From Agapetus fuscipes (Eukaryota > Arthropoda > Insecta > Trichoptera > Glossosomatidae): 64,000 bases of DNA. The translations under genes and the position numbers were made by a program. Where the stretch lies: NCBI GenBank assembly GCA_951799405.1, contig OX637333.1:17111960-17175959 (forward strand). The letters run 5' to 3'. Of this stretch, positions 1,866 to 63,861 are shown in pieces. Numbering within the stretch: the first letter of the stretch is position 1; each line of letters begins with the position of its first letter. The notes beneath the pieces are model-generated. The model ran no database searches and had not been told where the DNA came from. It worked only from the letters and a program-made list of their open reading frames with translations.

Positions 1866-2762
1866 GTCTTGACTAGGGAATGCAATCTTGCAGCAAAATC
1901 GCAATCTCGGTATTTGCGAGATTATGTAAATCCGATATCGCGAGATCTCGGTATTTGCGAGATTATGTAAATCCGATATCGCGAGATCTCGGTATTTGCA
2001 TGATCTCGCATTTAGTGGCCACATGGCTATATATTTTTGCTACAAAGTGTCATTTTGCTTTAGGTTGACAAGGAAAGTATATTAAAAAAACTTTTATTGT
2101 GATTTTTTTATTAGAATCAGAAATACAAGCTTATCAGAATCATAGACTATCATTTAATATGTTTATCAGGTAACTCATGGCATGGATTTTTGAAAAAAAC
2201 TCCTTAAGAATCATAGAATGTCAATCGTGGCATCAGATAATCTGCTTCTTACGTGAGACAATACGTAGCCTGCTGAAGAAAATGCCCTCTCAGATTCCAC
2301 GCTCTGTAAATATCTTCCTCTTGATACGCCATATTCAAAGAGGTGCATTTCTTTTTTGATGTTGGATTCTAGGATTGACATTAAAGTGTGCATTGGAACC
2401 GGAGTAGAGCGTTTACAAGATTTCAGGGTATTTTCCAACTCTTCCTGAAGCGATTGGTTAAAGAGCCACCGCTGTGCTTAAAGCTGCAAGTTTCTAGCAG
2501 AGACTGCAGAGAGTGGCATGTCGTCATCTTCGTCGAGTTGTATTAACACAGAAGTAGATTGGGTAGGTGTAGGAGCAAGAGAGTCAACGCCAACAGCATT
2601 GCGTCCACCCGCGTCGTCACTCGCGCGCTGATAGCACACGTGGCGCGCTGTCGCTTGATCTTGCAAATCTTGTGAGATCTCGCACTGTTTTCGATGCGAG
2701 ATTGGTCTTTCAAGATTGATGCGAGATCTCGGTATACTGAGATTGCATTCCCTAATCTTGAC
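1866..2762. mobile_element. hAT element nested in the diverged Gypsy
   Basis: Termini TAGGGAATGCAATCT (1874) and its inverse AGATTGCATTCCCTA (ending 2754) are flanked by GTCTTGAC and ATCTTGAC, an 8-bp target duplication with one mismatch that interrupts the Gypsy frame. Near the left end a roughly 50-bp unit containing GCGAGATCTCGGTATTTGCG repeats in tandem, and GCGAGATCTCGG recurs near the right end. These are subterminal repeats of the kind hAT transposases bind. At 881 bp with only a transposase remnant inside, it is non-autonomous. Confidence 0.85.
2211..2438 (-). pseudogene. hAT transposase C-terminal remnant
   Basis: About 75 codons. The segment SERAFSSAGYVLSHVRSRLS matches the hAT C-terminal dimerisation domain (Dimer_Tnp_hAT family: S-E-R-x-F-S-x-A-G followed by R-S-R-L). 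The RNase H-like catalytic core and the BED finger are absent, so this is the deletion relic of a once autonomous element. Confidence 0.75.
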
Positions 2763-3524
2763 TCTGTGAAGGTAGGGGCAGGCTGATCCACGTTGACAAC
2801 CTGTGGTCAGGAAGAAGTGGCAGTCCACGGATTTCTCCCCCCTGGCTCTCGGCTGCGCTTGCTCGCAGCACACCACGACACTGATGCCTGTTCCTGAGAA
2901 CACTGCCTCAATCATACTTCGGATGATCCGCCAGTCTCGATTAGCGCGGCCGCCACCCATCTTCGGTATCGCCAGACGGGCCTGCTGATCCTCCAGCATG
3001 TAGTCGCACAGCTCAACAAGACCGTCCCACAAAGCCTTGTAGTCATCTTCCAGGTTGCTGGAATCCGGGACAACCAGGCAGTATGCTTTTTGACGCCCCT
3101 ATAGTAGTCTCAGAGCTCTTCCTTGCTGGCTGCTCGAGGGTTGCGGTTCTCCGAACTTGTATCGGAAAATCCGTGCAATTCCTCTAGACATATTCAGATC
3201 TTCCGGTACACTGCATGCCAGAGTGTGATCCCGAGTGACCTCAAATAAGTCCTTCTGGACTTCCGTGATCACTCCATTGCGAGACTTCTGCCCGCCTTCG
3301 CGTTCTCCCAAAACGTCTCAAAGGCTGGTGATCTTTCGGATGCGACACACTGTCGTACTTTTTGGGCTGGTTGGTCATCATTATCGCCTAGGTATGGTGA
3401 GAGGCGATTGTAGTGCACGATCCTTGGTTTTCCGTTAGGTCTCTTCTTTATGCAGTAGATCACATCGTTGATGCGCTCCAAGATCTCGTACGGCCCGTCC
3501 CAGGAACGCTGAAGTTTAGGACAG

Positions 3525-3702
3525 TATTCACATCTAAGATTAATATTAAATGCACGCCCACAAGCAGGCGCGCTTGCACACGCTGCATGTGTACCTATAC
3601 ATAAAATAAACCAAACTTCAAATGAATAACCCAGTAACAACCCTTGCGACTCCTGCCACCTTTCCCTAAAACGGGTTGGCAAAAGTGAACCATTTTTACT
3701 TT
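3525..3702 (-). repeat. RTE 3'-end copy, rest of the copy split by Gypsy
   Basis: This is the remainder of the copy whose (ATAATCT) tail lies at 1376-1400. Gypsy DNA occupies 1401-3524. The RTE sequence fuses by chance in frame to the Gypsy remnant, making a chimeric open frame to 3682 that is not a real gene. Confidence 0.75.
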
Positions 3703-4189
3703 CTTGCTATAGCCGAAGGCTATAAAGAAAGTTATGATTTGGTGTGAAAAAAAAATTTCGAGGTTTTCACGGAAATGAGTTGTTCTGGTGCAGGACATGC
3801 CAAAAAACACTATCTTTCAAAAACGTCCGTCTGTATGTGTGTGTCACTTTCCAAAGTATAAGACCTAGAGATACCAAATTTTGGCTACATCAACTTTTTT
3901 GAACATGTATTAAGTACGAATAACACGGCATTACACCAACTTGAAAATTCAAGATGGCTGCCATTCAAAAAAAACATAAAATTGCACTTTTCTCAAAAAC
4001 GGCTCCAAGAATTTTTCTTAAATTTTCGGAATTGCCATTAATTAGTTTTTAACTTAATAAATTAGTTATGGCAACACTGTTACTAATCTGTGTCTATGGG
4101 CTGCCATATGAAAAAAACAAACGATTGTGATTTTCTCGAAAGTTAAGGGGTCAACAAAAATATAATGTTCTACAATATTTCTACAACTA
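3703..4189. repeat. Unclassified degenerate repeat, left part
   Basis: The words TTGAAAATTCAAGATGGC, TTCTCAAAAACGGCT and AAGAATTTTTCTTAAATTTT here recur in order at 5700-5800. A TAAGGGGTCAACAAAAATAT block at about 4145 matches one at about 5915. The LINE at 4190-5510 separates the copies. No coding potential or recognisable family. Confidence 0.55.
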
Positions 4190-5510
4190 CAGCTGGGTTC
4201 TACAACTACAGCTGGGCGAAACTCAGACTATCGCACTAGATATATCCAAAGCCTTCGACAGGGTATGGCACTCCAGCCTCCTAAACAAACTGACGGCTTT
4301 TGGACTTCCACCTCCACTAGTCCAATGGATATCTAGCTTTCTGAAAGGCAGATCTATTCAGACGGTTATAGATGGCTGTACATCGGGTCAGCTATCGATC
4401 AACTCTGGTGTCCCCCAAGGATCTGTCCTATCTCCAACACTATTTCTTTTGCACATCAATGACCTTCTGTCCTGTGCATCGATTCACTCCTACGCTGATG
4501 ATAGTACCATTCACGATGGCTTCTTGTTTGATAAACCCCAAAGCATCTCAACCCTTTCAGATGCCCGCAAACATTTAACATCAAAGATCAACACTGACCT
4601 CAAAGCTGTCAGCCACTGGGGAGCTGACAATCTCGTTGAATTTAATGTTAAAAAAACGCAGGCTTGTCAAATATCCCTGAAAAGGGCTCCAAACCCCAAT
4701 TTCCCAACCTTTGACAACGTCCCCTTACCCAACCAAAACCACTTAGATCTTCTCGGTGTTTCTCTTTCATCAGAGCTGAAATATCAAGACGCCATCTCAT
4801 CTCGAACCACTTCGGCCTTCCGGCGACTAGGCGTATTATATAGAGCTCGTAGATTTTTTACTTCAGCTCAACTGCTGACTCTATATAAATCCCAAATCCG
4901 TCCAATATAGAGTATAACAGCCATCTCTGGTCCGGTATACCAAAGAGGCTGTGTGACCAACTTGACTCTGTGCAAAGAAGAGCGGTGAAGCTGATTGATG
5001 ATCCCATTCTCACAGCCAACCTACATTCTCTTGAGCACAGAAGGAAAGTTGGAATGATCAGTCTCTTCTATAGGTACTACAACGGCGTCTGCTCTGATGA
5101 AATATCCTCACTTATACCCCCTCCTCTCGTCACAACAAGGGCAACTCGTAGAACGGCTCACATTCAACCATTTGCAGTCGATATCAAAACTATGAGAACT
5201 TGGTGTTTTCACAACTCATTCCTCTGCCAAACTGCCCGCTTATGGCATGAGTTACTGGTATCTGTGTTTCCATCCCAATTTAACCTTGCCCTTTTCAAAT
5301 CCAATATCAATCGCCATTTCCTCTCAGTGTCTCAAAACAAAGCAACGCCACACACACCACAGCACTGCGCAGCTAACGGCCCTGCAACCGGACATGGACA
5401 ACTGCCACATCACCAACACCTCTGCGGCACTATAACAAGTGTCATAGACCCTTAGAGTCTCTCGAATCTAGGGAGTCTCCCGCATAGGCTTTCTTAAAAA
5501 AAAAAAAATA
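4190..5510 (+). mobile_element. 5'-truncated Jockey-like LINE
   Basis: A reverse-transcriptase frame begins abruptly at about 4200, after the duplicated word TCTACAACTACAGCTGGG. A short 3' UTR follows and the element ends in a run of about 12 A (5495-5508). The A-tail and missing 5' part are typical of target-primed reverse transcription. No target duplication could be fixed. Confidence 0.75.
4200..5455 (+). pseudogene. LINE reverse transcriptase, partial and frameshifted
   Basis: The frame carries conserved RT blocks: ALDISKAFDRVWH (catalytic Asp), GVPQGSVLSPTLFLL, and the YADD box (HSYADDSTI, about 4495). A thumb and C-terminal region follow (QRRAVKLIDDP ... ARLWHELLVSVFP). A single-base change near 4905 moves the reading frame, splitting it into two open stretches (to 4910, then from about 4970 to 5455). 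The endonuclease and the start of RT are absent. The RT signature fits the Jockey/I group. Clade assignment beyond that is not possible by eye. Confidence 0.8.
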
Positions 5511-6445: not shown

Positions 6446-6715
6446 GACTGAGAAATGCGAGAAAATTGAGATAAGACTGAATGAAAAAAGAGTGGAGCTC
6501 GTGAAAGAATTTGATTATCTGGGAAGCAAGTTTGAGTCAAATGCGAAATTGATGAAATAATTGGAAAAGCGCGCTAGTAGAGGAAGAAGTGTAATGGAAA
6601 CGATTGGAAGCATTACAAGGAATAGGAAATTTACGAAGAATATGACATCGGCGGTCCACAATGGCATATTGGTTGGTGGAAGTGAGGCTTAATGAATGTG
6701 AGCTGAGTAAAGTAT
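6446..6715 (+). pseudogene. RTE-like LINE C-terminal relic, left of Gypsy
   Basis: A decayed frame (EKIEIRLNEKRVELVKEFDYLGSKF) with stop codons, matching the post-RT region of RTE-type LINEs. It continues across the Gypsy insertion at 13248-13640. The insertion site GTAT is duplicated on both sides. Confidence 0.65.
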
Positions 6716-6977
6716 TGTAACAATTATATAAAAGAAGGACACGCCTGAGCACAAGGCCAGGCTGGAGGGGGTAACGATAGGCTGGCGCGAGCAGTCTTGC
6801 AAAGCACGCACACAGAGCAAGATCTAGTTACTAGGGCGACCAATATGGTTTAAAATAACTGTAATCTGTACGAAATAAATAAGTGTGTTAAAATAAATCT
6901 ATTGTAACAAAGTCTGTGTAAATAAACTGTATGGCTAACTTGTGTTTTAATTAAGGACCCTCGGAAGAAACGTAACA
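6716..6977 (+). repeat. Gypsy 5' LTR (262 bp)
   Basis: Starts TGTAACAATTATATAAAAG, which includes a TATA-like word, carries AATAAA words near 6877-6885 and 6920, and ends GAAACGTAACA. It lacks the 11-bp duplication found in the right LTR. Confidence 0.95.
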
Positions 6978-6978
6978 A

Positions 6979-6997
6979 ATGGTGTCGGTGTGAAGTT
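6979..6997 (+). promoter_or_regulatory. Candidate primer-binding site
   Basis: TGGTGTCGGTGTGAAG starts two to three bases after the LTR end. It begins with TGG, the complement of a tRNA CCA end, at the place a minus-strand primer site must be. The tRNA species was not identified. Confidence 0.55.
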
Positions 6998-7403
6998 TAA
7001 AACCAAGTACTTAACTAAGTACCAAGTAAAAACTGTGCTTGAGATTATTAAAAAAAAATCTGAATTGACAATGTTTTAAATATTAAAATATTTCGGGGAC
7101 ATTATAAAACTTGTAATTATTGTGCGTAACTAACTACCTAGGTACCTACAACATTCGCGAATTCAAAATTATTATTGACTATTATTATGTACCTACGCTG
7201 TTGTTACTGACAGCCGAAGTGATATTGTGTTTGAAGCAGGTAGGTACCTACTTGTGCAAAACACTTTTGAAATAAAAATAAATTATTATTGTAAACAGTG
7301 AAAGAATTACAAAAACCCATATAGTTCGGCATTCCATTTAAATTTTGTTGTTTTCGTAAATAAATAAAAAAAAAAAAAAAATACAAATAAATTGAAGTGA
7401 AAC

Positions 7404-7628
7404 ATGGCCCAGTATATTGCCGTGTTGGACTTAAAAGTTTGTGAGCTAAAGGATGAGCTCATTGAACGCGACCTTGAAAGCACTGGCAACAAAACTGCCT
7501 TGCAGGCGAGGCTTATGGAAGCCCTGGAGAAAAATGGAGAAGACCCGAACGCCTTTGTTTTATTATCGGAAAGAATCGGGGCTTTGACGAGCTTAATCTC
7601 AGCATCATCGAGAGCTCCAAAAGTTTGA
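7404..7628 (+). CDS. Gypsy Gag N-terminal part with SAP-like motif
   Basis: A 74-codon frame starting MAQYIAVLDL. Residues about 10-42 (LKVCELKDELIERDLESTGN, then KTALQARLMEAL) fit the SAP helix-extension-helix DNA-binding motif: leucine-rich first helix, a G-N-K turn, then a second helix ending in L-x-x-x-L. The frame ends at 7628 but overlaps the larger gag frame starting near 7610. The downstream frame continues the protein logically (ESSKSLKEEM), so a one-base shift near 7610 probably split a single Gag. Alternatively the element makes two products. A nucleic-acid-binding Gag N-terminus could tether particles or pre-integration complexes to DNA; that role is inference. Confidence 0.7.
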   Translation: MAQYIAVLDLKVCELKDELIERDLESTGNKTALQARLMEALEKNGEDPNAFVLLSERIGALTSLISASSRAPKV

Positions 7629-8740
7629 AGGAAGAGATGGCCGAGAGCTCCAAAAGTTTGAAGGAAGAGATGGCCGAGAGCTCCAAAAGTTTAAAGGAAG
7701 AGATGGCCGACAATTCCAGAACCCTGGAAGAGAAGCTGGGGACCCTTAAAAATGAGATGGCTGACAACTCTAAAGCCCTTGAGGCTCTGGCAGAGAATAT
7801 GGCGGAGAGCAACAAAAATCTCAAGGAGGAACTGAGTGGTTTGATGGCGCAGAACTTGACCAGTCTCGAAGAAAAGCTCGATGAGAAGATTTCTGAAGGT
7901 TCCCGAGCGGTGATGGAAATTGAGGCACGCGTTGCAAGCCTTGAAAACCGTCTTCGTGCCGCCGTGAGTAGTGAAAAGCCTTTGCCGGATGATAAAACAC
8001 GGCATGAACTTAACGAAGACACCGTGACTGGTAAAACCATTCCTACAAAACATGATTTACCAACTTTCGATGGGAAGTCATCCTGGGAAGGGTACATGAC
8101 CCTATTCGAAACGGCAGCTATGTTGGGAAATTGGTCTCCACAGAGCAAGGCGTCCATGCTCAGCCTGTCACTTAGAGGAGATGCTCTGCGTGTGCTGCAG
8201 TCCATTCCTTTGGAAAACCGAGGGAATTATTTGGAGCTGAAGCAGCGCCTAGACATGCGCTTTGGGCACAAGTACCTGGAACAACTTTACAAATCCCAGC
8301 TAAATACCAGAGTACAGACAGCAAAGGAAAGTCTTCAAGAATTCGAGATGGACATTGCCCGACTAGTGAGAGATGCATACCCCTCAGCCCCTGACGACAT
8401 TTATGAGAGTCTGGCCGTGGACAAATTCCTCAATGGACTGCATGAATGGGAGACACAACAAGCGGTGAAACTGGCCCACCCAAAGACACTTAATGAGGCT
8501 TTAACCCAAGCATTGGAGTTTGAGGCCATCAAACAATCGATCAGAGGACATGTCAAAGTACGCGGTGTTGATGCAGAAGAAGCCAAGCCACCTTCGATTG
8601 AAGAACTAATCGAAAAGGTGTTGGAACGGCTAAGGCCCAGGAGGCGAGGAGTACGCTGCTGGAACTGCGGCCAACTGGGTCATCTGAGCATCAAATGTCC
8701 AAAACCCCAGAAACCCAAACCACAAGTCTCGGAAAACTAG
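7610..8740 (+). CDS. Gypsy Gag: coiled coil, capsid-like region, CCHC knuckle
   Basis: The first roughly 120 residues are heptad/hendecad coiled coil. Three 11-residue units (ESSKSLKEEMA), coded by near-identical 33-bp repeats from about 7610, are followed by looser copies. The middle matches the Gag/retrotransposon_gag layout (LPTFDGKSSWEGYMTLFE, LSLRGDALRVL, FEMDIARLVRDAYP). The C-terminus has a zinc knuckle C-W-N-C-G-Q-L-G-H-L-S-I-K-C (CX2CX4HX4C, about 8660-8699). Gag would form the particle and bind RNA. The frame overlaps pol, which lies in the -1 frame, so ribosomal frameshifting in 8695-8740 would link them. The ATG at 7625 lies inside the repeat; true Gag probably starts at 7404. Confidence 0.85.
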   Translation, partial: ESSKSLKEEMAESSKSLKEEMAESSKSLKEEMADNSRTLEEKLGTLKNEMADNSKALEALAENMAESNKNLKEELSGLMAQNLTSLEEKLDEKISEGSRAVMEIEARVASLENRLRAAVSSEKPLPDDKTRHELNEDTVTGKTIPTKHDLPTFDGKSSWEGYMTLFETAAMLGNWSPQSKASMLSLSLRGDALRVLQSIPLENRGNYLELKQRLDMRFGHKYLEQLYKSQLNTRVQTAKESLQEFEMDIARLVRDAYPSAPDDIYESLAVDKFLNGLHEWETQQAVKLAHPKTLNEALTQALEFEAIKQSIRGHVKVRGVDAEEAKPPSIEELIEKVLERLRPRRRGVRCWNCGQLGHLSIKCPKPQKPKPQVSEN

Positions 8741-11700
8741 AAAGGGTTGATGGGAAGGGGCAACTGTTGACCCGCGTTGGAGAGGCCCGGAAATCTGCTG
8801 CTATTGTCGCAACCTTGAAAGGTCGAGCTAGCAGCATCTTCATTAATGGCATGATAGATGGAAGGAATTGTGAACTACTGGTGGACACAGGAGCAACCAG
8901 GACGATTGTAAGACCAGACATAGCGACAAAGCAGAAGCAAATTTTACCAACAAGATGGTCTTTGCGTACAGCAACGGGAGAGTCAGCTCGAGTACACGGG
9001 GAGACGCTGGCAACCTTCCAGATTGGCAGCATGACTATCGAACATCGAACCTTGGTGGCCAATATTGAAGAAGAAGTTATTATTGGGATGGATATGCTCA
9101 CTAGACTTGGATGTAATCTGGACCTGAAGAAAGGGACCATAATTATTGGGAACGAAGAGATCATTATCCAAAAACGCAATGACATGGCCACTCGAGTAGT
9201 CGTAGCAGAGACTACAGAATTGAAAAAAAACTCCGAGATGATAGTACCAGCACGTTTTGACTCCAAGTGTGCAGAAGGACAGATTATTATGATGGAACCC
9301 GAGAAGATTGGCAAGATTGCAAAAGGAGTTCTAGTTGCCAGCGCAGTAATCCGCACACAAAAGATAGTCCCAATACGGGTGATGAACATAAATGATTATC
9401 CTATTACAATACACGAAGGCAGCACCCTGGGTAATTGCGTGATAATGATGTCCATTGTACGGAACGTGAAGAGTTCGAGCTACCAGGAAGGAAAGTTGCC
9501 TGGCCGATTAGATGAACTCACTCAGAGAGCTTGCCGAGAGCTTCCCGAAGAGGATGAATGGAAAGTAAAAAATCTTCTTTGCCGATATCAAGACATCTTT
9601 GAGGATTCCAACGGACCGTTGGGAAGAACCAAAATTGTACGACACTGCATTGACACTGGAGACTCAAGGCCAATTCGACAGGCACCGCGAAGGCTACCCT
9701 TTGCCAAGCGCGAGGAAGCAGACACAATTATCCAAGACATGCAACGGGACGGCATCATCGAACCATCAAACAGCCCGTGGACATCACCAGTTGTGTTAGT
9801 CAAAAAAAAAGATGGAACGACAAGGTTTTGCGTTGACTATCGTCAGCTCAATGATGTCACAAAGAAAGACAGCTACCCTTTGCCCAGAATAGACGACACT
9901 TTGGACACTTTGACAGGATGTGAGATCTTCTCAACTCTCGATTTGAAGAGTGGATATTGGCAGGTGGAATTGAATCCAAAGGATAAAGAGAAAACTGCCT
10001 TTTCGACAGGTTCTGGACTCTGGCAATTTACCGTTATGCCATTTGGGCTGTGCAATGCACCTGCTACGTTTGAACGCCTGATGGAAAGCGTGCTACGTGG
10101 ATTATCCTGGGAAAAATGTCTAGTATATTTGGATGACATCATTATTCTTGGAAAAACTTTTGATGACCAGCTGAAGAATCTGGAACAGGTATTTCTAAAA
10201 TTGCAACAAGCCGGGCTAAAGCTCAATCCAAAGAAATGTAACCTTTTTCAAAAACAAGTGAGCTATCTGGGGCACATAGTATCCGGAAAAGGGGTAGCAG
10301 TTGACCCAGAAAAGACTAGAGCTGTCAAAGACTGGCCGGTCCCGAGGGACAAGCATGAGGTCAGAAGCTTCCTGGGATTGTGTACCTACTACCGTCGATT
10401 TGTGCCAAGGTTTGCAGACATTTCTAAGCCATTGACTCGTCTCACCGAGGAGAAAAACAGCTTTTTATGGACAAATGACTGCCAACAGGCATTTGAAGAA
10501 CTAAAAAAACGTCTTACTAGTGCGCCAATCTTGAGTTACCCCAGATATGAAGGGCAATTCATCCTAGACACAGATGCCAGTAATGTCGGTATTGGGGGAG
10601 TTCTTTCCCAAATTCAGGATGGCCAAGAGACAGTGCTTGGATACTTCAGCAAAGTACTATCAAAACCAGAGCGGAACTATTGCGTCACTAGAAGAGAACT
10701 CCTGGCTGTGGTTAAATCAGTGGAACATTTCCGGAAGTACCTTTATGAAAGGAAATTCTTGTTGCGGACAGACCATGCCGCTCTGATGTGGTTGTTGAAA
10801 TTCAAAAACCCTGAGGGTCAAGTAGCCAGGTGGATGGAGAGACTCCAAGAATATGATTTTGATGCTGTACATCGAGCAGGAATTATCCATCGTAATGCCG
10901 ACGCTTTGTCAAGAAGGCCTTGTCACGAAGACTGCAGACATTGCAGCAGAGTGGACACAAAGGCTGCTATAGTAAGCCGGACGACAGTCACGAGCGAGGA
11001 TTGGAGAGAAGAAGAAATGAGGCAGGACCAAGAGAACGACCCAGAGCTGAAGTATCTAATACAATGGGTGCGAGAAAAACAAAGGCCAACCTGGGAACAA
11101 GTCGCCCCGTTATCACCAACCGTCAAATCGTATTGGGCTCAGTGGAACTCCATACAACTGGAAAATGGGATACTTAAACGAGCAATTGAAAACGAAGACG
11201 GTACAGTGAAGAAACTTCAGTTACTGGTACCAAAAGTGCGAGTCGCTGAAATCTTGAAGCTACTGCATGATGGGACGTCCGGTGGACACTTAGGAGTGAA
11301 AAAGACTCTGGAGAAACTGAGGGATCGGTTCTACTGGGTGAACTGCAAGGAAAATGTAAAAGATTGGTGCCGGAAATGCGTGACATGTGCCACAGCTAAT
11401 GGACCCTTAAGAAAGAAGAGAGCCCCCATGCGCCAGTACAATGTTGGGAGCCCATTTGAAAGGATCGCTATTGACATCGCTGGTCCATACCCGACTACCG
11501 AAGATGGCAACAAGTACATTCTGGTGGCCATGGACTATTTCAGTAAATGGGTAGAAGCATACGCTTTACCCAACCAAGAAGCAGTTACGGTAGCAGAAGC
11601 GCTGGTGACCCAACTGATAAGCCGATTTGGAGTACCACTGGAACTGCACTCTGATCAAGGGCGGAACTTTGAGGCCACAGTATTCCAGCAAATGTGCGAC

Positions 11701-12963
11701 TTGCTGGGGATCAAGAAGACGAGAACCACAGCCCTGCATCCACAGTCTGATGGGATGGTAGAAAGGATGAACCGGACGGTTGGGAGATATTTGGCAAAGC
11801 ATGTGTCAAGTCATCAGAGGGACTGGGACCGACATCTTCCCCTATTTCTTTTGGCTTATAGGTCTGCAGTTCACGAAACTACTGGCCAAACACCTGGGAG
11901 CATTCTTTTTGGGCGAGAACTGCGACTGCCATGTGACCTGAAGTTTGGGTGCCGACCGACTGAGGATCTTGCAGGAGAGGACTACGTCTCGGATCTCCGC
12001 AGGCGACTAGATGGTGCCCACGAGCAAGTGCGAGCAAACATCCGTGAGGCAAGTGGTCGGATGAAAGAGCGATACGACATCCGGGCTGAGGACGGTGGAT
12101 ACCAAGCTGGGGATTTAGTATGGCTGTTTGACCCAAAAAGGCGCCGAGGATACTCTCCAAAACTACAACGCTCATGGGATGGGCCGTATGAGGTCGTAAA
12201 ACGCATCAATGACATCATCTACAAGATAAGGAAAGAGCCAAGCGGAAAACCACGGATTGTCCATTTTAACCGCCTCACACCATATCTGGGAAACAACCAC
12301 GATGACAGCCCGGAGCAAAGAGCACGAAGGTGTGCCGGATTTAAGGGAGCAGCCACTTTTGATGATTTTTGGGTTGAAGCACAAGATGGGCGAAAAATTC
12401 GGCATGACATTACCAAAGAAGTCCAACAGGATCTCTTTGCTGTACCATCTAACTACGCCATGGCTTGTTGCACGGCTGAAGACCTGGACATGTCTCGCGG
12501 GGTTGCTGGAGCATTCCGTAATAAGTTCGGCAAGGTAACAACACCGGTGGAGTCGGGGCCTATTGCAGGGAGAGCATTACGACTACCTGGTGAAGAGCGT
12601 CACGCATACTGCCTGGTGACAAGGATGACAGTTTTGGAGAAGACTGGTTATCAAGACCTGTGGGACAGCCTCGTGCATCTACGGGACCAACTGATGCAAG
12701 CCGGCATTTCCAAGCTGGCCGTACCAAAGATGGGTGGTGGACCAGCAGGACGAGACTGGAGGATCATCAGGAACATAATGGAAACAGTCTTCGAAAATAC
12801 TGGCATCGAAATCCTGGTGTGCTGCGAGCAGCTGCAGAGAAGACACCCAGACGACCGGACGGTGGATTGTTACTTCTTCTCTAGAGCCGGATGCAGTCGA
12901 GGGACATCTTGCAGATACCGGCATGCTCCAGGTTCAAGACTGTTCCGGGACGGAACAGCCTAA
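8695..12963 (+). CDS. Gypsy Pol with C-terminal macrodomain-like module and CCCH zinc finger
   Basis: 1422 codons, uninterrupted. Retropepsin: LLVDTGA, Asp64. Reverse transcriptase: YLDD at 478-481. RNase H: Asp627, Glu668, Asp693, Asp736. Integrase: HHCC finger with His858, His865, Cys895, Cys898; DD35E core Asp927, Asp987, Glu1023; then a GPY-type segment (DGPYEVVKRIND). Residues about 1240-1380 look like a macrodomain of the OARD1/TARG1 type: SRGVAGAFRNKFG, AYCLVTR, LAVPKMGGG, RDWRIIRNIMETVFENTGIE. The family's usual Gly-Leu-Asp catalytic Asp is not conserved (GGGPAGRDW), so binding rather than hydrolysis is more likely. The tail holds a CCCH finger, Cys1392-x7-Cys1400-x5-Cys1406-x3-His1410. 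The first ATG overlaps gag, and expression as Gag-Pol by -1 frameshifting is inferred. The diverged copy at 1827-3524 keeps the C-terminal modules. Confidence 0.93.
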   Translation: MSKTPETQTTSLGKLERVDGKGQLLTRVGEARKSAAIVATLKGRASSIFINGMIDGRNCELLVDTGATRTIVRPDIATKQKQILPTRWSLRTATGESARVHGETLATFQIGSMTIEHRTLVANIEEEVIIGMDMLTRLGCNLDLKKGTIIIGNEEIIIQKRNDMATRVVVAETTELKKNSEMIVPARFDSKCAEGQIIMMEPEKIGKIAKGVLVASAVIRTQKIVPIRVMNINDYPITIHEGSTLGNCVIMMSIVRNVKSSSYQEGKLPGRLDELTQRACRELPEEDEWKVKNLLCRYQDIFEDSNGPLGRTKIVRHCIDTGDSRPIRQAPRRLPFAKREEADTIIQDMQRDGIIEPSNSPWTSPVVLVKKKDGTTRFCVDYRQLNDVTKKDSYPLPRIDDTLDTLTGCEIFSTLDLKSGYWQVELNPKDKEKTAFSTGSGLWQFTVMPFGLCNAPATFERLMESVLRGLSWEKCLVYLDDIIILGKTFDDQLKNLEQVFLKLQQAGLKLNPKKCNLFQKQVSYLGHIVSGKGVAVDPEKTRAVKDWPVPRDKHEVRSFLGLCTYYRRFVPRFADISKPLTRLTEEKNSFLWTNDCQQAFEELKKRLTSAPILSYPRYEGQFILDTDASNVGIGGVLSQIQDGQETVLGYFSKVLSKPERNYCVTRRELLAVVKSVEHFRKYLYERKFLLRTDHAALMWLLKFKNPEGQVARWMERLQEYDFDAVHRAGIIHRNADALSRRPCHEDCRHCSRVDTKAAIVSRTTVTSEDWREEEMRQDQENDPELKYLIQWVREKQRPTWEQVAPLSPTVKSYWAQWNSIQLENGILKRAIENEDGTVKKLQLLVPKVRVAEILKLLHDGTSGGHLGVKKTLEKLRDRFYWVNCKENVKDWCRKCVTCATANGPLRKKRAPMRQYNVGSPFERIAIDIAGPYPTTEDGNKYILVAMDYFSKWVEAYALPNQEAVTVAEALVTQLISRFGVPLELHSDQGRNFEATVFQQMCDLLGIKKTRTTALHPQSDGMVERMNRTVGRYLAKHVSSHQRDWDRHLPLFLLAYRSAVHETTGQTPGSILFGRELRLPCDLKFGCRPTEDLAGEDYVSDLRRRLDGAHEQVRANIREASGRMKERYDIRAEDGGYQAGDLVWLFDPKRRRGYSPKLQRSWDGPYEVVKRINDIIYKIRKEPSGKPRIVHFNRLTPYLGNNHDDSPEQRARRCAGFKGAATFDDFWVEAQDGRKIRHDITKEVQQDLFAVPSNYAMACCTAEDLDMSRGVAGAFRNKFGKVTTPVESGPIAGRALRLPGEERHAYCLVTRMTVLEKTGYQDLWDSLVHLRDQLMQAGISKLAVPKMGGGPAGRDWRIIRNIMETVFENTGIEILVCCEQLQRRHPDDRTVDCYFFSRAGCSRGTSCRYRHAPGSRLFRDGTA

Positions 12964-12974
12964 GGAGGGGGCAA
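12962..12974 (+). promoter_or_regulatory. Polypurine tract
   Basis: AAGGAGGGGGCAA lies between the pol stop codon and the 3' LTR. This is the expected position and composition for the plus-strand DNA primer. Confidence 0.75.
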
Positions 12975-13247
12975 TGTAACAATTATATAAAAGAAGGACA
13001 CGCCTGAGCACAAGGCCAGGCTGGAGGGGGTAACGATAGGCTGGCGCGAGCAGTCTTGCAAAGCACGCACACAGAGCAAGATCTAGTTACTAGGGCGACC
13101 AATATGGTTTAAAATAACTGTAATCTGTACGAAATAAATAAGTGTGTTAAAATAAATCTATTGTAACAAAGTCTGTGTAAATAAACTGTATGGCTAACTT
13201 GTGTTGAACTTGTGTTTTAATTAAGGACCCTCGGAAGAAACGTAACA
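12975..13247 (+). repeat. Gypsy 3' LTR (273 bp)
   Basis: Matches the left LTR throughout except for an extra 11 bp near 13198-13210, where TTGTGTT is repeated (CTTGTGTTGAACTTGTGTT). It is followed by the target duplication GTAT. Confidence 0.95.
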
Positions 13248-13640
13248 GTATGTAAGTACGGTTGAAATGGCTTACCTGAGAGCAATGGCTGGAAAGACAC
13301 TGAGTGATAGAGTACGTAATGCTTGAGTGGTGAACGAGTGTGGTATAAAAGAGAATATGAGAATGAAAGTACAAAAAAGTACGATGAGATGGTTCAGACA
13401 TCTTGAAAGAATGGATGATGAACAACTAACGAAGAAAGTGTACAAAGGAAATGTCAGAGGAAAGCGCGGAAGGGGAAGGCTGAGGAAAGAACGGTAAGAC
13501 CAAAAAGGTGAGATTGCGAAAGAATGGATCCTGCAGAGTGAGAATAAGAGAAGAGTATGTATGAAAAAGGTGATGACAGCAAAAAGTGGAGGCGCATCTG
13601 CGGAGGTACCGGCCACCCCTAATGAAACGGTGGCAGGATA
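13248..13640 (+). pseudogene. RTE-like LINE C-terminal relic, right of Gypsy
   Basis: Continues the relic at 6446-6715. Recognisable pieces of the RTE tail (DEMVQT, TTNEE.VY, RGKRGRG) remain in shifting frames with many stops, matching better copies at 45847-46278. Long dead. Confidence 0.6.
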
Positions 13641-22298: not shown

Positions 22299-22440
22299 GG
22301 TTATTTTTATATATTTAAGACTTGTCTATATAGTTAAGATTGTGTCAAACGACACATAACTGTAGTTTAGATTTTATTTATATATTTTTTAGTATTATGA
22401 CAATTTTGTTTTTCCATCGAGTCTGTCTGGTTAAGATGGT

Positions 22441-23904
22441 TTGATGGAGGGACAAAGGCGCACAGAATCTGACAAGTTCTGTCGCCGTGAAGCTTGGGGA
22501 GTGTCAAATGGCCCCTGCAGGGTTGCCAAAGCTTTTACCACACTGAAGAAATCACTTCCGTCTGGTAACAGTAGACGTAAGCAAGAAGATGAATGGAAAA
22601 TTGGAACTTTAAATGTAAGAGGAATGAAGGACAAAGAACAAGAGTTAGAGAAAGAGATGAATGACAGGAAGATTAATATTCTATGTGTGACTGAGACCAA
22701 GATGAAAGGTGAAGGGGAGAAAGTTCTGAGTAATGGTAGTTTATTCATTTACTCGGGAGTGAAAGATGGATGCCCTAGACAGGGTGTTGGTGTGATTATA
22801 ATTGAGAGTGTGAGAAATTATGTTAGGAATTACGAATGGATCTCTCCTAGGATTCTTCTAGTGAGGATCAGGTATGGAAGTATGAACTTTTTACTCATTG
22901 CATGCTATGCGCCAGTAGATTCAGAATGTATGGAGACTAAAAATGAATTCTGGGATATGCTTGATGACACAGTCAGAATGAAAGACGAGAATGAAAAGTT
23001 ATTGCTTCTTGGTGACATGAATGGATGGGTAGGTAGAAGAAAGGATGAATATGAGAGGGTCGTAGGACCAAATGGAAGAGGTGTCATCAATGGAAGTGGG
23101 AGACGTCTTGTCGACATGTGTGTGGAGCATGGTATGTTTGTATCAAATACCTGGTTTAAACATAAAGACGTGCACACATATACGTGGTATGGGCCAAATA
23201 CTCGCACTGTCATTGACTACATATGTATGGAAGAATGTATGAGAGGTGCCATAAGAGATGTCAGAGTCTACCAAGGTGTATCCGTGGGATCAGACCATCA
23301 TCTCTTGTGTGCCACAGTGATGATAGGTAAAGTGAAAATGTTGAAAAGAACGAAAGTTATTAAGATGAAAAGAATAAAGGTAGAAAAACTAGATGATGAA
23401 AGTGTGAGGAATGATTTTGAAGTGGAAGTAAGCCAGATTTTGAAATCGGATGAATGCAAAGAATTGGCGAAGAATGCATGTGTAGGAAAAATGTGGGAAA
23501 CATTTAAAACATGTTTGGTTGAAAGTGCAAAGAAAGTATGTGGAGAAGTGACGATTGGGCATAGAAAAGGCAATGAATGGTGGAACGATAAGGTTAAACA
23601 AGCAGTGAAAGAGAAGAAAGATAGTTATTTAAAATGGATTAATGATAGAAAGAATAAAATGTTAGAGACCGAGTACAAGAGGAAAAAATGGCTAGCGAAG
23701 AATGAAGTTCAAATGAGTAAGAGAAGTATGGAAGAGAAATTAAGTGAAAGAGCACAGAATGACTTCTCTGACAATAAAAAGATGTTTTGGAGCTGGGTGA
23801 GACAAAACAACGAAAGTTGTAAGTCCACAACTCCGGGAATCAAAAATGTCAGCGGAGACATTCTGTGGAATAAAGAAGATGTAAGATATTTAAGGAAAAT
23901 TTAA
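22441..23904 (+). pseudogene. RTE-like LINE endonuclease ORF, truncated before RT
   Basis: 487 codons. The APE-type endonuclease runs from about residue 52 with recognisable motifs: IGTLNVRGM (Asn), CVTETKM (catalytic Glu), VGVIII, LIACYAPVDS, LLLLGDMNGWVG (Asp/Asn), TYTWYGPNTRTVIDYI and SVGSDHHLL (final Asp-His). This is the DNA-nicking module of target-primed reverse transcription. A long charged linker follows, and the frame ends at YLRKI before any RT motif. A normal RTE ORF would continue for several hundred residues. The C-terminal region of the same family is seen at 45847-46278 and 53395-53685. Confidence 0.85.
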
Positions 23905-29649: not shown

Positions 29650-30842
29650 ATATATATATACAAGGATAATTTATTTATAAGGTACACATAATTGAAGAGC
29701 GCCGTTTTTGTGTGTGTCACACCTCAAGGGCCCTCTCAAATCACGGATAAGATTTTTTGTAAAGATGCGTCTTTAGTGCTCCTTTAAAGACACCAACAGT
29801 TTCTGCCTTCCTCACATTAGGTGGTAGTCTGTTCCACTCCATTGGGCCCGCAAACCGGAAAGCACGGTCCCCAAAATTAGTGCGTGTCTGACGTGACGGC
29901 TGGACTAAGTCAACCACCCCACACCCTGCAGATCTGAGAGTTTGGCGTCTCAAATCTATCTCAATAGGTGAGAACATGTCAGACAGGTATGAAGGAGCCG
30001 TACCATTGACAGCTTTGTAAACCATCAAACAAACACGGTAGACCACCCTCTCCGGAAAACGAAGCCAATGCAGTTCTTTCAACAATGGAGTAATATGATT
30101 AAATTTGGACATCCCGAAAATGAGTCTTGCTGCAGAGTTCAGCACAGATTGTAGTCGGCTGAACTGTTTTTTCGGCTGACCTATATACAGCGTTGAGCAA
30201 TAGTCAACCCGAGACATCACAAAAGCGTTAACCAGGGTCCTGACCGCCCCTGATGGTAAACATCTCCTGATTGCCTTAATCTGGCGAAGTTCAAAAAACG
30301 AGGAGGATACCGTGTTATTCAACTGCTCTCCCATTGTGAGGTTCCGATCCAGTGTGACTCCTAGAAGTCTCACTGAATCTGACGGCTGAATCAGCTGTCC
30401 CCCAATGGAGAGTGGTACGCGAGTTGTCAGGAGATGATCACGCCTGGACGTAGCCGCCCACATAATTTCCGTCTTACCCATGTTAAGGATTAGGCCATTG
30501 CTTGTCATCCATTCACCGATCTCCGCAATGCAAGCTGCCATTCTGTTACTGAGAGCTCCCGCCATGTGTGGTCGACACTGAGAGTAAATCTGCCAGTCAT
30601 CTGCATATGCATGTGTAGTAAGGCTCCATTTCTCGACTATGCTCTCAATGTCGGCCGTGTATAAAATAAATAGGATCGGTCCCAACACAGACCCCTGCGG
30701 CACTCCGGAGATCAGCGAATAGGAAGGTGAGACACAGTCACAAGTACGCACTACCTGCTTGCGATCCGCCAAATAGGAGGTGAACCACGCCAGAGCCTTA
30801 TCTCTCAAGCCGTACGCATCCTCCAACCTCTTTATCAAGATA
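29650..30842 (-). mobile_element. 5'-truncated CR1/L2-type LINE
   Basis: On the minus strand it runs from within RT to a 3' end carrying GGTGTGACACACACAAAAACG and a (TA)n tail at 29650-29660. It is flanked by TCAT target duplications inside an RTE repeat. Confidence 0.9.
29744..30842 (-). pseudogene. CR1/L2 LINE reverse transcriptase, C-terminal two thirds
   Basis: About 365 uninterrupted codons. It starts mid-RT (ILIKRLEDAYGLRDKALAWF), then LISGVPQGSVLGPILFILYT, catalytic box AYADDWQIY (about 30590), LRLNMGKTE-like ILNMGKTEIMW and the thumb (VRLLGVTLDRNLTM). The C-terminal domain follows, with SRLQSVLNSAARLIFGMSKF, LHWLRFPERVVYRVC and the terminal KTHLYKKSYP. Endonuclease and palm start are missing. 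The open frame extends upstream to 30973 through RTE repeat, a chance fusion. The lack of stops suggests a fairly recent insertion. Confidence 0.88.
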
Positions 30843-31019
30843 TCATGTGAACCTACAACATAAAAACCAAATTTCAAATGGGCATACACCCTGCAACTCT
30901 TGCCATCCTTCCTTGAAACAGGGGTGACATTGGCAAAGTGAACCATTTTCACAGCATGGGTGGTCAGCCGCATACCAACCTATAAGTCAAGGAACATACA
31001 CGACAAATTACATTTCAAA

Positions 31020-60949: not shown

Positions 60950-63712
60950 AATAATAATAATAATAATAATAATTGGACAATTTGTATACAGCGCCGTTTA
61001 GTGGCACTAGCCACCCCAAGGGCGCTTTTATGTGTTGAAGCTTCTGTTAAACAAATGTGTCTTAAGCAACTTCCTGAAACTGCCAACACTGGTCTCTGTT
61101 CTCAACTCCAGAGGTAGACTATTCCAGCAGGATGGACCAGCCGAACTAAAAGCCCTGTCTCCGAAACCAGTTCTGTTCCGTCGAAGAGGCAGTTGAAGCC
61201 TGTTTACGGCGTCACTCTGTGCAGAACGAAGAGTGCATCGTTTTCCACCTATCTGGTCGACTCTGCACAATTCACACAAGTACGATGGGGCAACTCCTCT
61301 GAGGGCATTAAAAACAGAAACACATATTTTGTACTCAATCCTCTCTGGGACTCGCAGCCAATGAAGGCGCCGCAACAGAGGAGAGACATGGTCAGTTTTT
61401 CGTCCTCCTAAAAGTAATTTGGCTGCAGCATTAAAGACGGACTGCAGTCTAGACTGCTGAAACCTTGGAAGACCCCAGAACAGACCATTGCAATAATCCA
61501 GTCTCGACACAACAAAGGACGCAATGAGAATCTTAGCAGCTTCGGATGTCAAACAGTTTCTGACCCATCTCAACTGCCTCAGGTGAAAAAAACAGGAGCT
61601 CACAGTCGAGCTTATTTGCGTACTCATGGAGAGAGTGTTGTCAAGATGGACCCCAAGAAACTTAATTGAGCTAGATGGATATACATCCAGGCCCATTACT
61701 TTAATTGGTGAAGAGCCAAGCAAGTGTTTCCTACCAGGAGACGACATCCAGATGAATTCTGTCTTGTCTGGATTCATTCTAAGGCGACACCTTGCCATCC
61801 ACTCAGCCACCACTTCAATGCACCGGACCATCTCAAGACTACAGGCATCTGTCATAGATGGCTGACAGAAACGACAAAGTAGAATATCATCAGCATAAGA
61901 ATAGTAGCTGGTGCCGTTCATCAGTACAGTGCTCTCAAGATCATTTGTGTACAGGGTAAAAAGTAAAGGCCCGAGCACAGATCCCTGAGGCACACCACAG
62001 TCCATGGGCATACCTGATGACTCACCATCAACATCCACAGTCTGACATCTGCCTTTCAGATATGAAGATAGCAATTTAGATACTCCTCCTCGGACTCCGT
62101 ACAACCTATCAAGCTTAGTGATGAGTATACTGTGATCAACAGTGTCGAAGGCAGCGCTCATGTCAAGTACTGCCACCATGGCAAGAGCACCGTCCCCAAC
62201 CGCAGCTATCACATCATTCACAATGCGAAGTAAGGCAGTCTCAGTGGAATGAGCTTTTCTATATGCTGACTGAAACTTAGACAGATATCCGCCTCGCTCC
62301 ATGTGCTGAGTGAGTTGCCAAACAACGGCCTTCTCAATAATTTTCGATATAAAAGGAACGGACGACACAGGTCTATAATTTTCCACAGAATCAGCTGGAA
62401 GGCTTGATTTTTTGAGAATTGGTGTAACAATTGATTTTTTAAGTTCCGTGGGAAAAATACACTCTGTAGTGAGAGACTTGTTGACCAATGCTGACAGAAT
62501 AGGTGCCACTTCACTTAAGCATCTTTTGACCAGCCATGTTGGAATTGGATCTAGTTTACATTGCTTGTTTGGACATGTGAGTACAAGCTTAACAACATCA
62601 TTCAACAAGACAGGCTTAAATGAAAAAATAACATTGCAACAATTGTTTGACTCTGGGGGATTAAAAATGGTCGCTGCACTGGATTCTCTTATTCTTCGTA
62701 ACTTCTCTGAAAAGTGACGAGAGAATTCACTTGCAGGAAGCTCCGGATGCTGAGTAGAACTTTTTCCCAGGACAAAGCTCATCGACTTCCACAGCGCCCT
62801 GGGGTTCTTGGCTTCGGTCTCCATTTTTCTGGTCCAGTAGGACGACCTTTTCCTCCTTATCAAAGTCCAATAGATGGTCTGGGCATTCATCCAGGTTGCA
62901 CGTGCAGTTTCTGTGCGACACCGTCGATACCTCCTCTCAAGGCGTCTCATCTCTGCTTTGCCACATCTGCATTCCTCATCAAACCAGCACTCAGATCTTC
63001 TCTGTCTCCTGATGGTTGTTTTGAGAGGAGCGTATTTGTTGATCAGCGAGAGCATGGTGCTATTGTAAGATTTGATAAGTTTGTTCGTGTCTGCCGAGGC
63101 AATAAAGTTTTTGTTGCAGATGTCGCTTCCAGACAACTCACATTGAAACTGCTCAACATTAAAATTCCGCCAAGGTCTGTTTGTGATACGTTTAAAAATT
63201 GGTTTTGGAGGGTTGAATACCGTAACTGCGGTTACTAGGCGATGATCCGTGTGGCCAATGTCAAGGACTTGACACTGTAGCAGAGGATCACCTGCATTAC
63301 AAATCACAACATCCAGGATACCACCTGCATCATGCGTCACCTGGTTCACCCGCTGATGAAAATTGAAATCATGCAACATACATAAAAACTTGGTGCTGTG
63401 GCCATCCTCCGCTCTATCAAGTCGGATGTTCATATCTCCCACAATAAACACTAGCATGGAATAGGTTGTCAGGCGTGTCAAAAGCTTCTTGAATTCATCG
63501 AAGAATAACGTACAGGGAGGCTTGGATCCAGGCCTGTAGACATTCACAATCAACACTGATGATCCACGAGACGTAAACACGCCAGCAATGCACTCAAAAG
63601 AAGAAAATTCAGGAACACTCTGTATCTGAGAGACCCTAAAACCATTTTTTACCACTATGACCACTCCGCCATGGTTAGTTATGTGTGCAGATTCAGTGGG
63701 TGGCATTTTTCG
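60950..63712 (-). mobile_element. CR1/L2-type LINE, nearly full ORF
   Basis: On the minus strand it starts abruptly in the endonuclease at about 63712 and ends with a short 3' UTR, the CCACTAAACGGCGCTGTATA terminus and an (ATT)n tail at 60951-60973. The microsatellite tail and hairpin-like 3' end are typical of CR1/L2 elements. Confidence 0.9.
61028..63706 (-). CDS. CR1/L2 LINE ORF2: endonuclease (partial) and reverse transcriptase
   Basis: 892 codons without a stop. The endonuclease is missing its first part. It keeps GGVVIVVKNGFRV, VNVYRPGS, VGDMNIRLDR (Asp/Asn), GGILDVVICN and DIGHTDHRLV (catalytic Asp-His). RT blocks: CKLDPIPTWLVKRC, NYRPVSSVPFISKIIEK, YLSKFQSAYRKAHSTETALL, VAVLDMSAAFDTVDHS (first catalytic Asp), MDCGVPQGSVLGPLLFTLYT, the SYYSYADDI box (about 61905), LRMNPDKTEFIWM and IKFLGVHLDNTLS. 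The C-terminal domain ends KLLKTHLFNRSF. It copies LINE RNA at nicked target DNA. Intact coding implies a young insertion; the copy is disabled only by 5' truncation, so the ATG at 63706 is not the native start. Confidence 0.9.
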   Translation of the reverse strand: MPPTESAHITNHGGVVIVVKNGFRVSQIQSVPEFSSFECIAGVFTSRGSSVLIVNVYRPGSKPPCTLFFDEFKKLLTRLTTYSMLVFIVGDMNIRLDRAEDGHSTKFLCMLHDFNFHQRVNQVTHDAGGILDVVICNAGDPLLQCQVLDIGHTDHRLVTAVTVFNPPKPIFKRITNRPWRNFNVEQFQCELSGSDICNKNFIASADTNKLIKSYNSTMLSLINKYAPLKTTIRRQRRSECWFDEECRCGKAEMRRLERRYRRCRTETARATWMNAQTIYWTLIRRKRSSYWTRKMETEAKNPRALWKSMSFVLGKSSTQHPELPASEFSRHFSEKLRRIRESSAATIFNPPESNNCCNVIFSFKPVLLNDVVKLVLTCPNKQCKLDPIPTWLVKRCLSEVAPILSALVNKSLTTECIFPTELKKSIVTPILKKSSLPADSVENYRPVSSVPFISKIIEKAVVWQLTQHMERGGYLSKFQSAYRKAHSTETALLRIVNDVIAAVGDGALAMVAVLDMSAAFDTVDHSILITKLDRLYGVRGGVSKLLSSYLKGRCQTVDVDGESSGMPMDCGVPQGSVLGPLLFTLYTNDLESTVLMNGTSYYSYADDILLCRFCQPSMTDACSLEMVRCIEVVAEWMARCRLRMNPDKTEFIWMSSPGRKHLLGSSPIKVMGLDVYPSSSIKFLGVHLDNTLSMSTQISSTVSSCFFHLRQLRWVRNCLTSEAAKILIASFVVSRLDYCNGLFWGLPRFQQSRLQSVFNAAAKLLLGGRKTDHVSPLLRRLHWLRVPERIEYKICVSVFNALRGVAPSYLCELCRVDQIGGKRCTLRSAQSDAVNRLQLPLRRNRTGFGDRAFSSAGPSCWNSLPLELRTETSVGSFRKLLKTHLFNRSFNT

Positions 63713-63861
63713 AGCCTTTTCTATGACAGAGTATTTTATATACAGAGTATTTTATATAGTATTTTATATAGTACTTTATATTTCGTTTTTATATTTTTAT
63801 TGGAGAGGTCTGCTTGGACAGGCGACCGACAAGGTATACTCACCCATCACAAAAATGTAAG
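63713..63861. other. AT-rich tandem words
   Basis: GTATTTTATATA is repeated about four times (63728-63780). No gene. Confidence 0.5.

What the first reader, a model, noticed from the sequence alone, without database searches (positions are those of the whole stretch)
12421..12963. Gypsy Pol ends in a macrodomain-like module plus CCCH zinc finger
After a complete integrase the frame continues about 180 residues. It has the block order of an OARD1/TARG1-type macrodomain (SRGVAGAFRNKFG, AYCLVTR, LAVPKMGGG, RDWRIIRN), then Cys1392-x7-Cys1400-x5-Cys1406-x3-His1410. The Gly-Leu-Asp catalytic Asp of TARG1-type enzymes seems replaced (GGGPAGRDW), and the Lys of the L-I-T-K block is Arg. ADP-ribose binding or reading is therefore more likely than hydrolysis. 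A retroelement carrying an ADP-ribose module could counter PARP-linked defence or target ADP-ribosylated chromatin; that role is inference.
Basis: partly seen in the sequence, partly recalled or inferred. Interest (0 to 1): 0.88.

Follow-up and report, generated by a model that had tools for sequence, protein, structure and literature searches.

The report
Retrotransposon carrying ADP-ribose macrodomain tail
A family of jumping genes, with relatives in insects, carries fused to its replication protein a copy of the cell enzyme that removes ADP-ribose tags; in this genome the tag-removing residues are gone but the domain still looks protected by selection, so the elements may read or mask a host signal.

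The parts
6712..6715 (.). target-site duplication GTAT, left
   Evidence: sequence at both ends
6716..6977 (+). 5' LTR (262 nt)
   Evidence: 262 of 262 aligned bases equal the 3' LTR; one 11-nt indel
7404..7625 (+). Gag N-terminal part with SAP domain (frame differs from the rest of gag in this copy)
   Evidence: PF02037 E 2.8e-10; frames
7478..8740 (+). Gag main frame: coiled repeats, capsid-like part, CCHC knuckle
   Evidence: zf-CCHC E 5.6e-5; Ty3_capsid E 0.0021, below cut-off
8842..9105 (+). aspartyl protease
   Evidence: PF13975 E 1e-11
9799..10281 (+). reverse transcriptase
   Evidence: PF00078 E 5.7e-36
10549..10854 (+). RNase H
   Evidence: PF17917 E 6.5e-33
11227..12282 (+). integrase: H2C2 finger, catalytic core, C-terminal domain
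   Evidence: PF17921 9.1e-19, PF00665 8.7e-15, PF22938 2.2e-11
12400..12828 (+). TARG1/OARD1-type macrodomain without the catalytic pair
12622..12624 (+). Arg codon at the position of TARG1 Lys84
   Evidence: alignment
12745..12747 (+). Ala codon at the position of TARG1 Asp125
   Evidence: alignment
12868..12924 (+). CX7CX5CX3H zinc finger
12975..13247 (+). 3' LTR (273 nt)
13248..13251 (.). target-site duplication GTAT, right
2757..3550 (-). older, broken copy of a second family (B): integrase C-terminal part, macrodomain, CCCH; tail 49% identical

Best explanation
A Ty3/Gypsy lineage with relatives in insects acquired a TARG1-type macrodomain plus a CCCH finger at the end of Pol, just before the purine-rich tract. 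Five of the seven related proteins that cover both sites keep TARG1's catalytic Lys/Asp and are probably ADP-ribose hydrolases. In the clade of the window element the pair was lost, once on the tree, and the domain was kept by selection as an ADP-ribose reader or mask. It is joined to Gag (as the end of Gag-Pol in autonomous elements, as a direct Gag fusion in short elements), so it most likely acts in or on the particle: the macrodomain holds ADP-ribosylated host protein, RNA or cDNA ends, while the CCCH finger holds RNA. Shown: domain identity, predicted fold, loss of the pair, constraint on the macrodomain in family A, and the Gag fusion at one fully read locus. Inferred: hydrolysis by the pair-kept relatives, ADP-ribose binding, RNA binding, particle location, and the PARP link.
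Against: No binding data. The distal-ribose side of the pocket is changed, so affinity may be lost. Family A's integrase part shows no such contrast (shared N8:S5, private N27:S16, 41 of 48 copies). Its CCCH part has too few variants (shared N2:S1, private N5:S1). In family B the shared-variant test shows no depletion: short elements N5:S1, autonomous N5:S4; the overall ratios (short N24:S20, p 0.017; autonomous N21:S21, p 0.006) are biased because the search ranked copies by protein score. Only one short element was read in full. In the PARP-1 paper ten further elements that rose did not pass the false-discovery limit, and the authors allow an indirect cause.
Confidence: 0.5

Rival explanations
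1. The macrodomain no longer binds ADP-ribose; the tail is an RNA- or Gag-binding scaffold for packaging, with the CCCH finger as its working part.
For: Pocket changes at K84, C122, L124, D125; tail fused directly to Gag in a short element whose own CCHC knuckle looks shortened by eye; CCCH spacing in 88 of 88 A and B tails.
Against: The DLF motif and the glycine positions G43, G53 and G123 are unchanged across about 50% divergence, and the macro part of family A is constrained.
Confidence: 0.25
2. The domain is still a hydrolase by another chemistry, as in Streptomyces SCO6735, which also lacks the Lys/Asp pair.
Against: SCO6735 needs Gln85 at the Lys84 place; here that place is Arg, Pro, Gly or Leu. 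Asp125 to Ala stops TARG1 on DNA ends.
Confidence: 0.13
3. The tail is an integrase targeting module, like the chromodomain of chromoviruses, steering insertion to ADP-ribosylated chromatin.
For: It sits C-terminal to integrase, where chromodomains sit (abstract of PMC3605345).
Against: An LTR element keeps the tail without any integrase in its frame, and 24 of 40 family-B tails follow its coiled-coil part (19 of the 40 had been chosen for a frame length like that element's). Insertions of family A show a short sequence preference, RTAY in 22 of 25 read on the 3' side, which needs no such reader.
Confidence: 0.08
4. The tail is a passenger left by gene capture.
For: The catalytic pair was lost in this clade; family B shows no depletion of shared nonsynonymous variants.
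Against: Depletion in family A; no stop in any of 40 B tails, although these were ranked by score; same architecture in a beetle record and in unnamed ones.
Confidence: 0.04

Closest known systems
Human TARG1/OARD1/C6orf130
   Same: fold, length, pocket frame, best match by sequence and structure
   Different: here fused behind integrase or Gag and followed by CCCH; Lys84 and Asp125 lost in this clade
Fish epsilon-like endogenous retroviruses with macro-domain ORFs (Basta 2009; seen only as one sentence in PMC4977317)
   Same: a retroelement carrying a macro domain
   Different: named there as additional open reading frames in fish ERVs; the sentence does not give the type of macrodomain or any CCCH finger
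Chromoviruses (chromodomain at the integrase C-terminus; abstract of PMC3605345)
   Same: extra reader-type domain behind integrase
   Different: other fold and ligand (recalled); here the module also occurs without integrase
Alphavirus nsP3 macrodomains
   Same: macro fold in a parasite, with a neighbouring zinc-binding domain (abstract of PMC7468284)
SF1-helicase and DNMT capture by retrotransposons (PMC6338049, part 1 of 4 read; PMC5890265, start of abstract)
   Same: accessory domain in a retrotransposon protein
   Different: other domains; no macro domain in the part read

Membership tests
TARG1/OARD1-type macrodomain | best sequence match to TARG1 over the whole domain | tested here: met
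   E 3.1e-17 and 2.8e-40; next family DarG 4.6e-5
TARG1/OARD1-type macrodomain | macro fold | tested here: met
Catalytically active TARG1 hydrolase | Lys84 and Asp125 | tested here: not met
   Arg and Ala in the window; Ala in 94 of 94 loci
ADP-ribose binder | measured binding | not testable with these tools
   pocket residues partly kept
CCCH zinc finger | Cys/His spacing conserved among relatives | tested here: met
   48 of 48 A, 40 of 40 B, 4 of 6 other tails; P0003 passes zf-CCCH
CCCH zinc finger | zinc-finger fold | tested here: inconclusive
   pLDDT under 50 in that part
Ty3/Gypsy LTR retrotransposon | LTRs, TSD, gag, PR-RT-RH-IN order | tested here: met
Ty3/Gypsy LTR retrotransposon | named clade by RT tree | not tested
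   no reference set at hand
Chromovirus | chromodomain behind integrase | tested here: not met
   no chromodomain among the Pfam matches up to E 1

The most novel reading that the evidence does not exclude
A retrotransposon lineage turned a captured ADP-ribose eraser into an ADP-ribose mask. Carried in Gag particles, the dead macrodomain covers ADP-ribose that host PARPs place on its particle, RNA or cDNA ends, and so shields the element from repair or silencing. The shield is worth so much that parasites of the parasite (Gag-myosin-macro-CCCH elements) threw away every enzyme but kept it.
Probability: 0.22. Interest if true: 0.93.

Novelty: new variant of a known kind. Interest (0 to 1): 0.82.

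Why it matters
ADP-ribosylation counter-measures are known from RNA viruses (for instance PMC12363162, abstract). Here the same kind of module sits in a multicopy, recently inserted LTR retrotransposon, with both states (pair kept, pair lost) known for comparison. That makes the question whether PARP-type ADP-ribosylation restrains retrotransposons testable with purified domains. It also shows that a routine scan misses the domain: Pfam's Macro model scored the window's tail at E 0.099.

Tried and rejected
Chance match: rejected by E-values, predicted fold and the number of copies. Assembly accident: rejected, because the same architecture is in P0007-P0009 from other sources, and in P0010 up to its cut CCCH part, and in many copies here. 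Integrase targeting as the main role: made unlikely by the short elements. Searches that found nothing: the Pol-length protein search with the tail as region (425 candidates, none reached E 0.001); viral contigs with P0001, P0006, P0002, P0008; genome contigs with P0009 and P0003. Literature for a macro domain in retrotransposons: (listings from an open-access library); only the fish-ERV sentence was found. That is no proof that it is not in print. The host's own TARG1 gene could not be looked for: that search did not complete.

Limits: the genome search scored 150 of 1080 candidates, so copy numbers are lower bounds. Of 50 near full-length family-A rows I used 48; the two dropped start late or are shorter. 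For the family-A integrase part 41 of 48 were used, the rest being under 93% identical without gaps. I tested four parts of family A (integrase part, macro, CCCH, whole tail) without correction for number of tests. Of the 40 family-B tails, the first 20 were the top rows of that type in a list ranked by protein score (one such row, L036, is counted with the six others), and 19 more were chosen because their frame length (761-863) suggested the short form (15 were, 4 were not), with L043 added; so 24 of 40 is not a frequency. The pairwise ratios (macro 0.105, CCCH 0.041, integrase part 0.41) pool non-independent pairs. The A-against-B comparison is saturated. L047-L076 repeat family-A copies and were not counted again. 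The myosin label rests on Myosin_tail_1 (4.6e-12) and a weak match to Myosin-10 (E 0.0031); that it came from a host gene is inference.

Full report
What is there. The window holds a young Ty3/Gypsy element at 6716-13247. Its LTRs agree at 262 of 262 aligned bases with one 11-base indel, and it is flanked by GTAT on both sides. Pol is open from 8602 to 12963, with protease, RT, RNase H and integrase in the usual order. The frame continues beyond the integrase C-terminal domain and ends at the stop just before a purine-rich tract and the 3' LTR.

The family. A profile search of about 5.8 billion proteins gave nine hits. P0007-P0010 show the integrase C-terminal domain followed by the macrodomain; P0010 lacks a full CCCH. 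P0008 is from Exocentrus adspersus (a beetle). P0011 from Ladona fulva (a dragonfly) and P0012 from Aquatica leii (named; a firefly, recalled) are short and cover only the first part of the macrodomain. The others have no name. P0006-P0010 carry Lys and Asp at the places of TARG1 Lys84 and Asp125. The window element, copy B in the window, P0003 and P0005 carry Ala for Asp and Arg, Pro or Gly for Lys. On a tree built without those two columns these four rows form one clade (100/99) and the state changes once. So the pair was probably present when the tail was acquired and was lost once in this clade. The tree has twelve rows and a long branch to TARG1, and five of its nine inner branches are poorly supported.

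The host genome. The search of that genome scored 150 of 1080 candidates, all at E 1.1e-49 or better. I looked at 48 family-A tails, 40 family-B tails and 6 others. All 94 have Ala at position 125; position 84 is Arg in all A tails, Pro in all B tails, and Arg, Pro or Leu in the six others; four A tails and one of the others hold a stop. Residues that TARG1 and all five pair-kept relatives share are partly kept in the lost clade: the DLF motif at 20-22, D37, M40, G43, A45, G53, Y93, G123 and W129 among others are unchanged, while H32, Y80, K84, C122, L124, D125 and L127 among others are changed. The side that in macrodomains holds adenosine and diphosphate (recalled) thus seems better kept than the side that holds the distal ribose.

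Selection. A dead domain could be drifting. In the 48 A copies I split macro-coding variants into those found in one copy (mostly arisen after insertion, inference) and those in two or more (passed on through transposition). Private: 22 nonsynonymous, 5 synonymous, 3 stops. Shared: 1 nonsynonymous, 9 synonymous; against neutral expectation p 1.2e-4, shared against private p 1.4e-4. Copies that transposed therefore kept the protein sequence. The integrase part of the same copies, 41 of 48 usable, shows no such contrast (shared 8:5, private 27:16, 3 stops). The CCCH part has too few variants (shared 2:1, private 5:1). In family B the shared variants show no depletion (16 autonomous-form tails 5:4, 24 short-form tails 5:1); all variants together are below neutral (21:21 and 24:20), but these copies were ranked by protein score, which works against nonsynonymous changes. 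Between families B and C the tail gives dN 0.18, dS 0.87; C is 88-100% identical to copy B over about 180 bases near its end and 63-77% before that, so exchange between families affects that figure. The case for selection thus rests mainly on family A.

The tail without Pol. Of the 20 family-B tails fetched first, 12 follow integrase and 8 follow something else, although the tails are 95-100% identical to the reference copy. With further tails, 19 of them chosen by frame length, the count is 16 and 24. In L116 (5,000 bases around one of the latter) a single frame of 795 codons lies between LTRs that agree at 473 of 474 bases, flanked by GTAT. It encodes a SAP domain, coiled coil, Gag (58% identical to the window's Gag, E 4e-145), a knuckle that looks shortened, a myosin-like coiled-coil piece (Myosin_tail_1, E 4.6e-12), then macrodomain and CCCH. 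Pfam finds no protease, RT, RNase H or integrase in that frame (E up to 0.01). So at least one LTR element has dropped every enzyme and kept Gag and this tail; the other copies were read only from 200 to 600 bases before the tail. P0005, a protease part joined to the same tail, may be another such product, or an assembly join.

How it may work. The tail is joined to Gag-Pol in one form and to Gag in the other; what both share is Gag, so it should reach the particle (inference). TARG1 removes ADP-ribose from Glu/Asp, from thymidine and from DNA ends, and D125A stops the activity at DNA ends (PMC5725667, passages; PMC8501950, passages). A linear cDNA also has such ends (inference). Pair-kept relatives may therefore clean ADP-ribose from particle or cDNA; the window clade may bind and cover it instead. 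In Drosophila without PARP-1 five of eight significantly changed mobile elements were up; ten more, nine of them gypsy-superfamily LTR elements, rose without passing the false-discovery limit, and the authors allow an indirect cause (PMC7712786, passages). An alternative that I cannot exclude is an RNA-binding or Gag-binding scaffold whose pocket is empty.

Known or new. Macro domains in retroelements have a precedent in fish ERVs (one sentence in PMC4977317), and accessory domains in retrotransposon proteins are well known (PMC6338049, part 1 of 4 read). What I have not found in the searches is a TARG1-type macrodomain plus CCCH as the end of a Gypsy Pol, its loss of the catalytic pair, or the Gag-myosin-macro-CCCH element. 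I therefore call it a new variant of a known kind.

Noticed in passing
L116:1296-3683: LTR element whose single ORF fuses SAP-Gag, a myosin-like coiled-coil piece, macrodomain and CCCH, with no enzyme domains; 24 of 40 family-B tails fetched follow the same coiled-coil part, 19 of the 40 chosen for such a frame length.
   Followed up: partly
window 7404-8740: Gag starts with a SAP domain in one frame and continues in another in this copy; 33-base repeats at about 7609-7739 encode a coiled stretch.
   Followed up: no
family A 3' flanks, L001-L030: The four bases after the 3' LTR are RTAY in 22 of 25 copies whose LTR end was found, of 30 looked at; only the 3' side was read.
   Followed up: partly
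window about 1885-2757, minus strand: Copy B is interrupted by an insertion flanked by an 8-base repeat (by eye); its frame looks hAT-like (recalled motif; the 92-aa piece of it tested has no Pfam hit).
   Followed up: no
window 1904-1985: Exact 41-base tandem repeat within that insertion.
   Followed up: no
L032: A third family (C) that is 88-100% identical to copy B over about 180 bases near its end and 63-77% before that: tails seem to be exchanged between families.
   Followed up: partly
P0005: Protease part joined directly to the macro+CCCH tail in a 1,442-base contig: internal deletion, splice product or assembly join.
   Followed up: no
BFVD A0A8E0KJF2: Kadipiro virus VP8 is the best viral structural match by E-value (3.8e-12, 26% identity, but rmsd 12.2 over 197 columns); it may hold a TARG1-like macrodomain.
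   Followed up: no
window 22435-23904, 29741-30979, 61028-63751, 4131-4910: Parts of other retroelements with RT or endonuclease domains.
   Followed up: no
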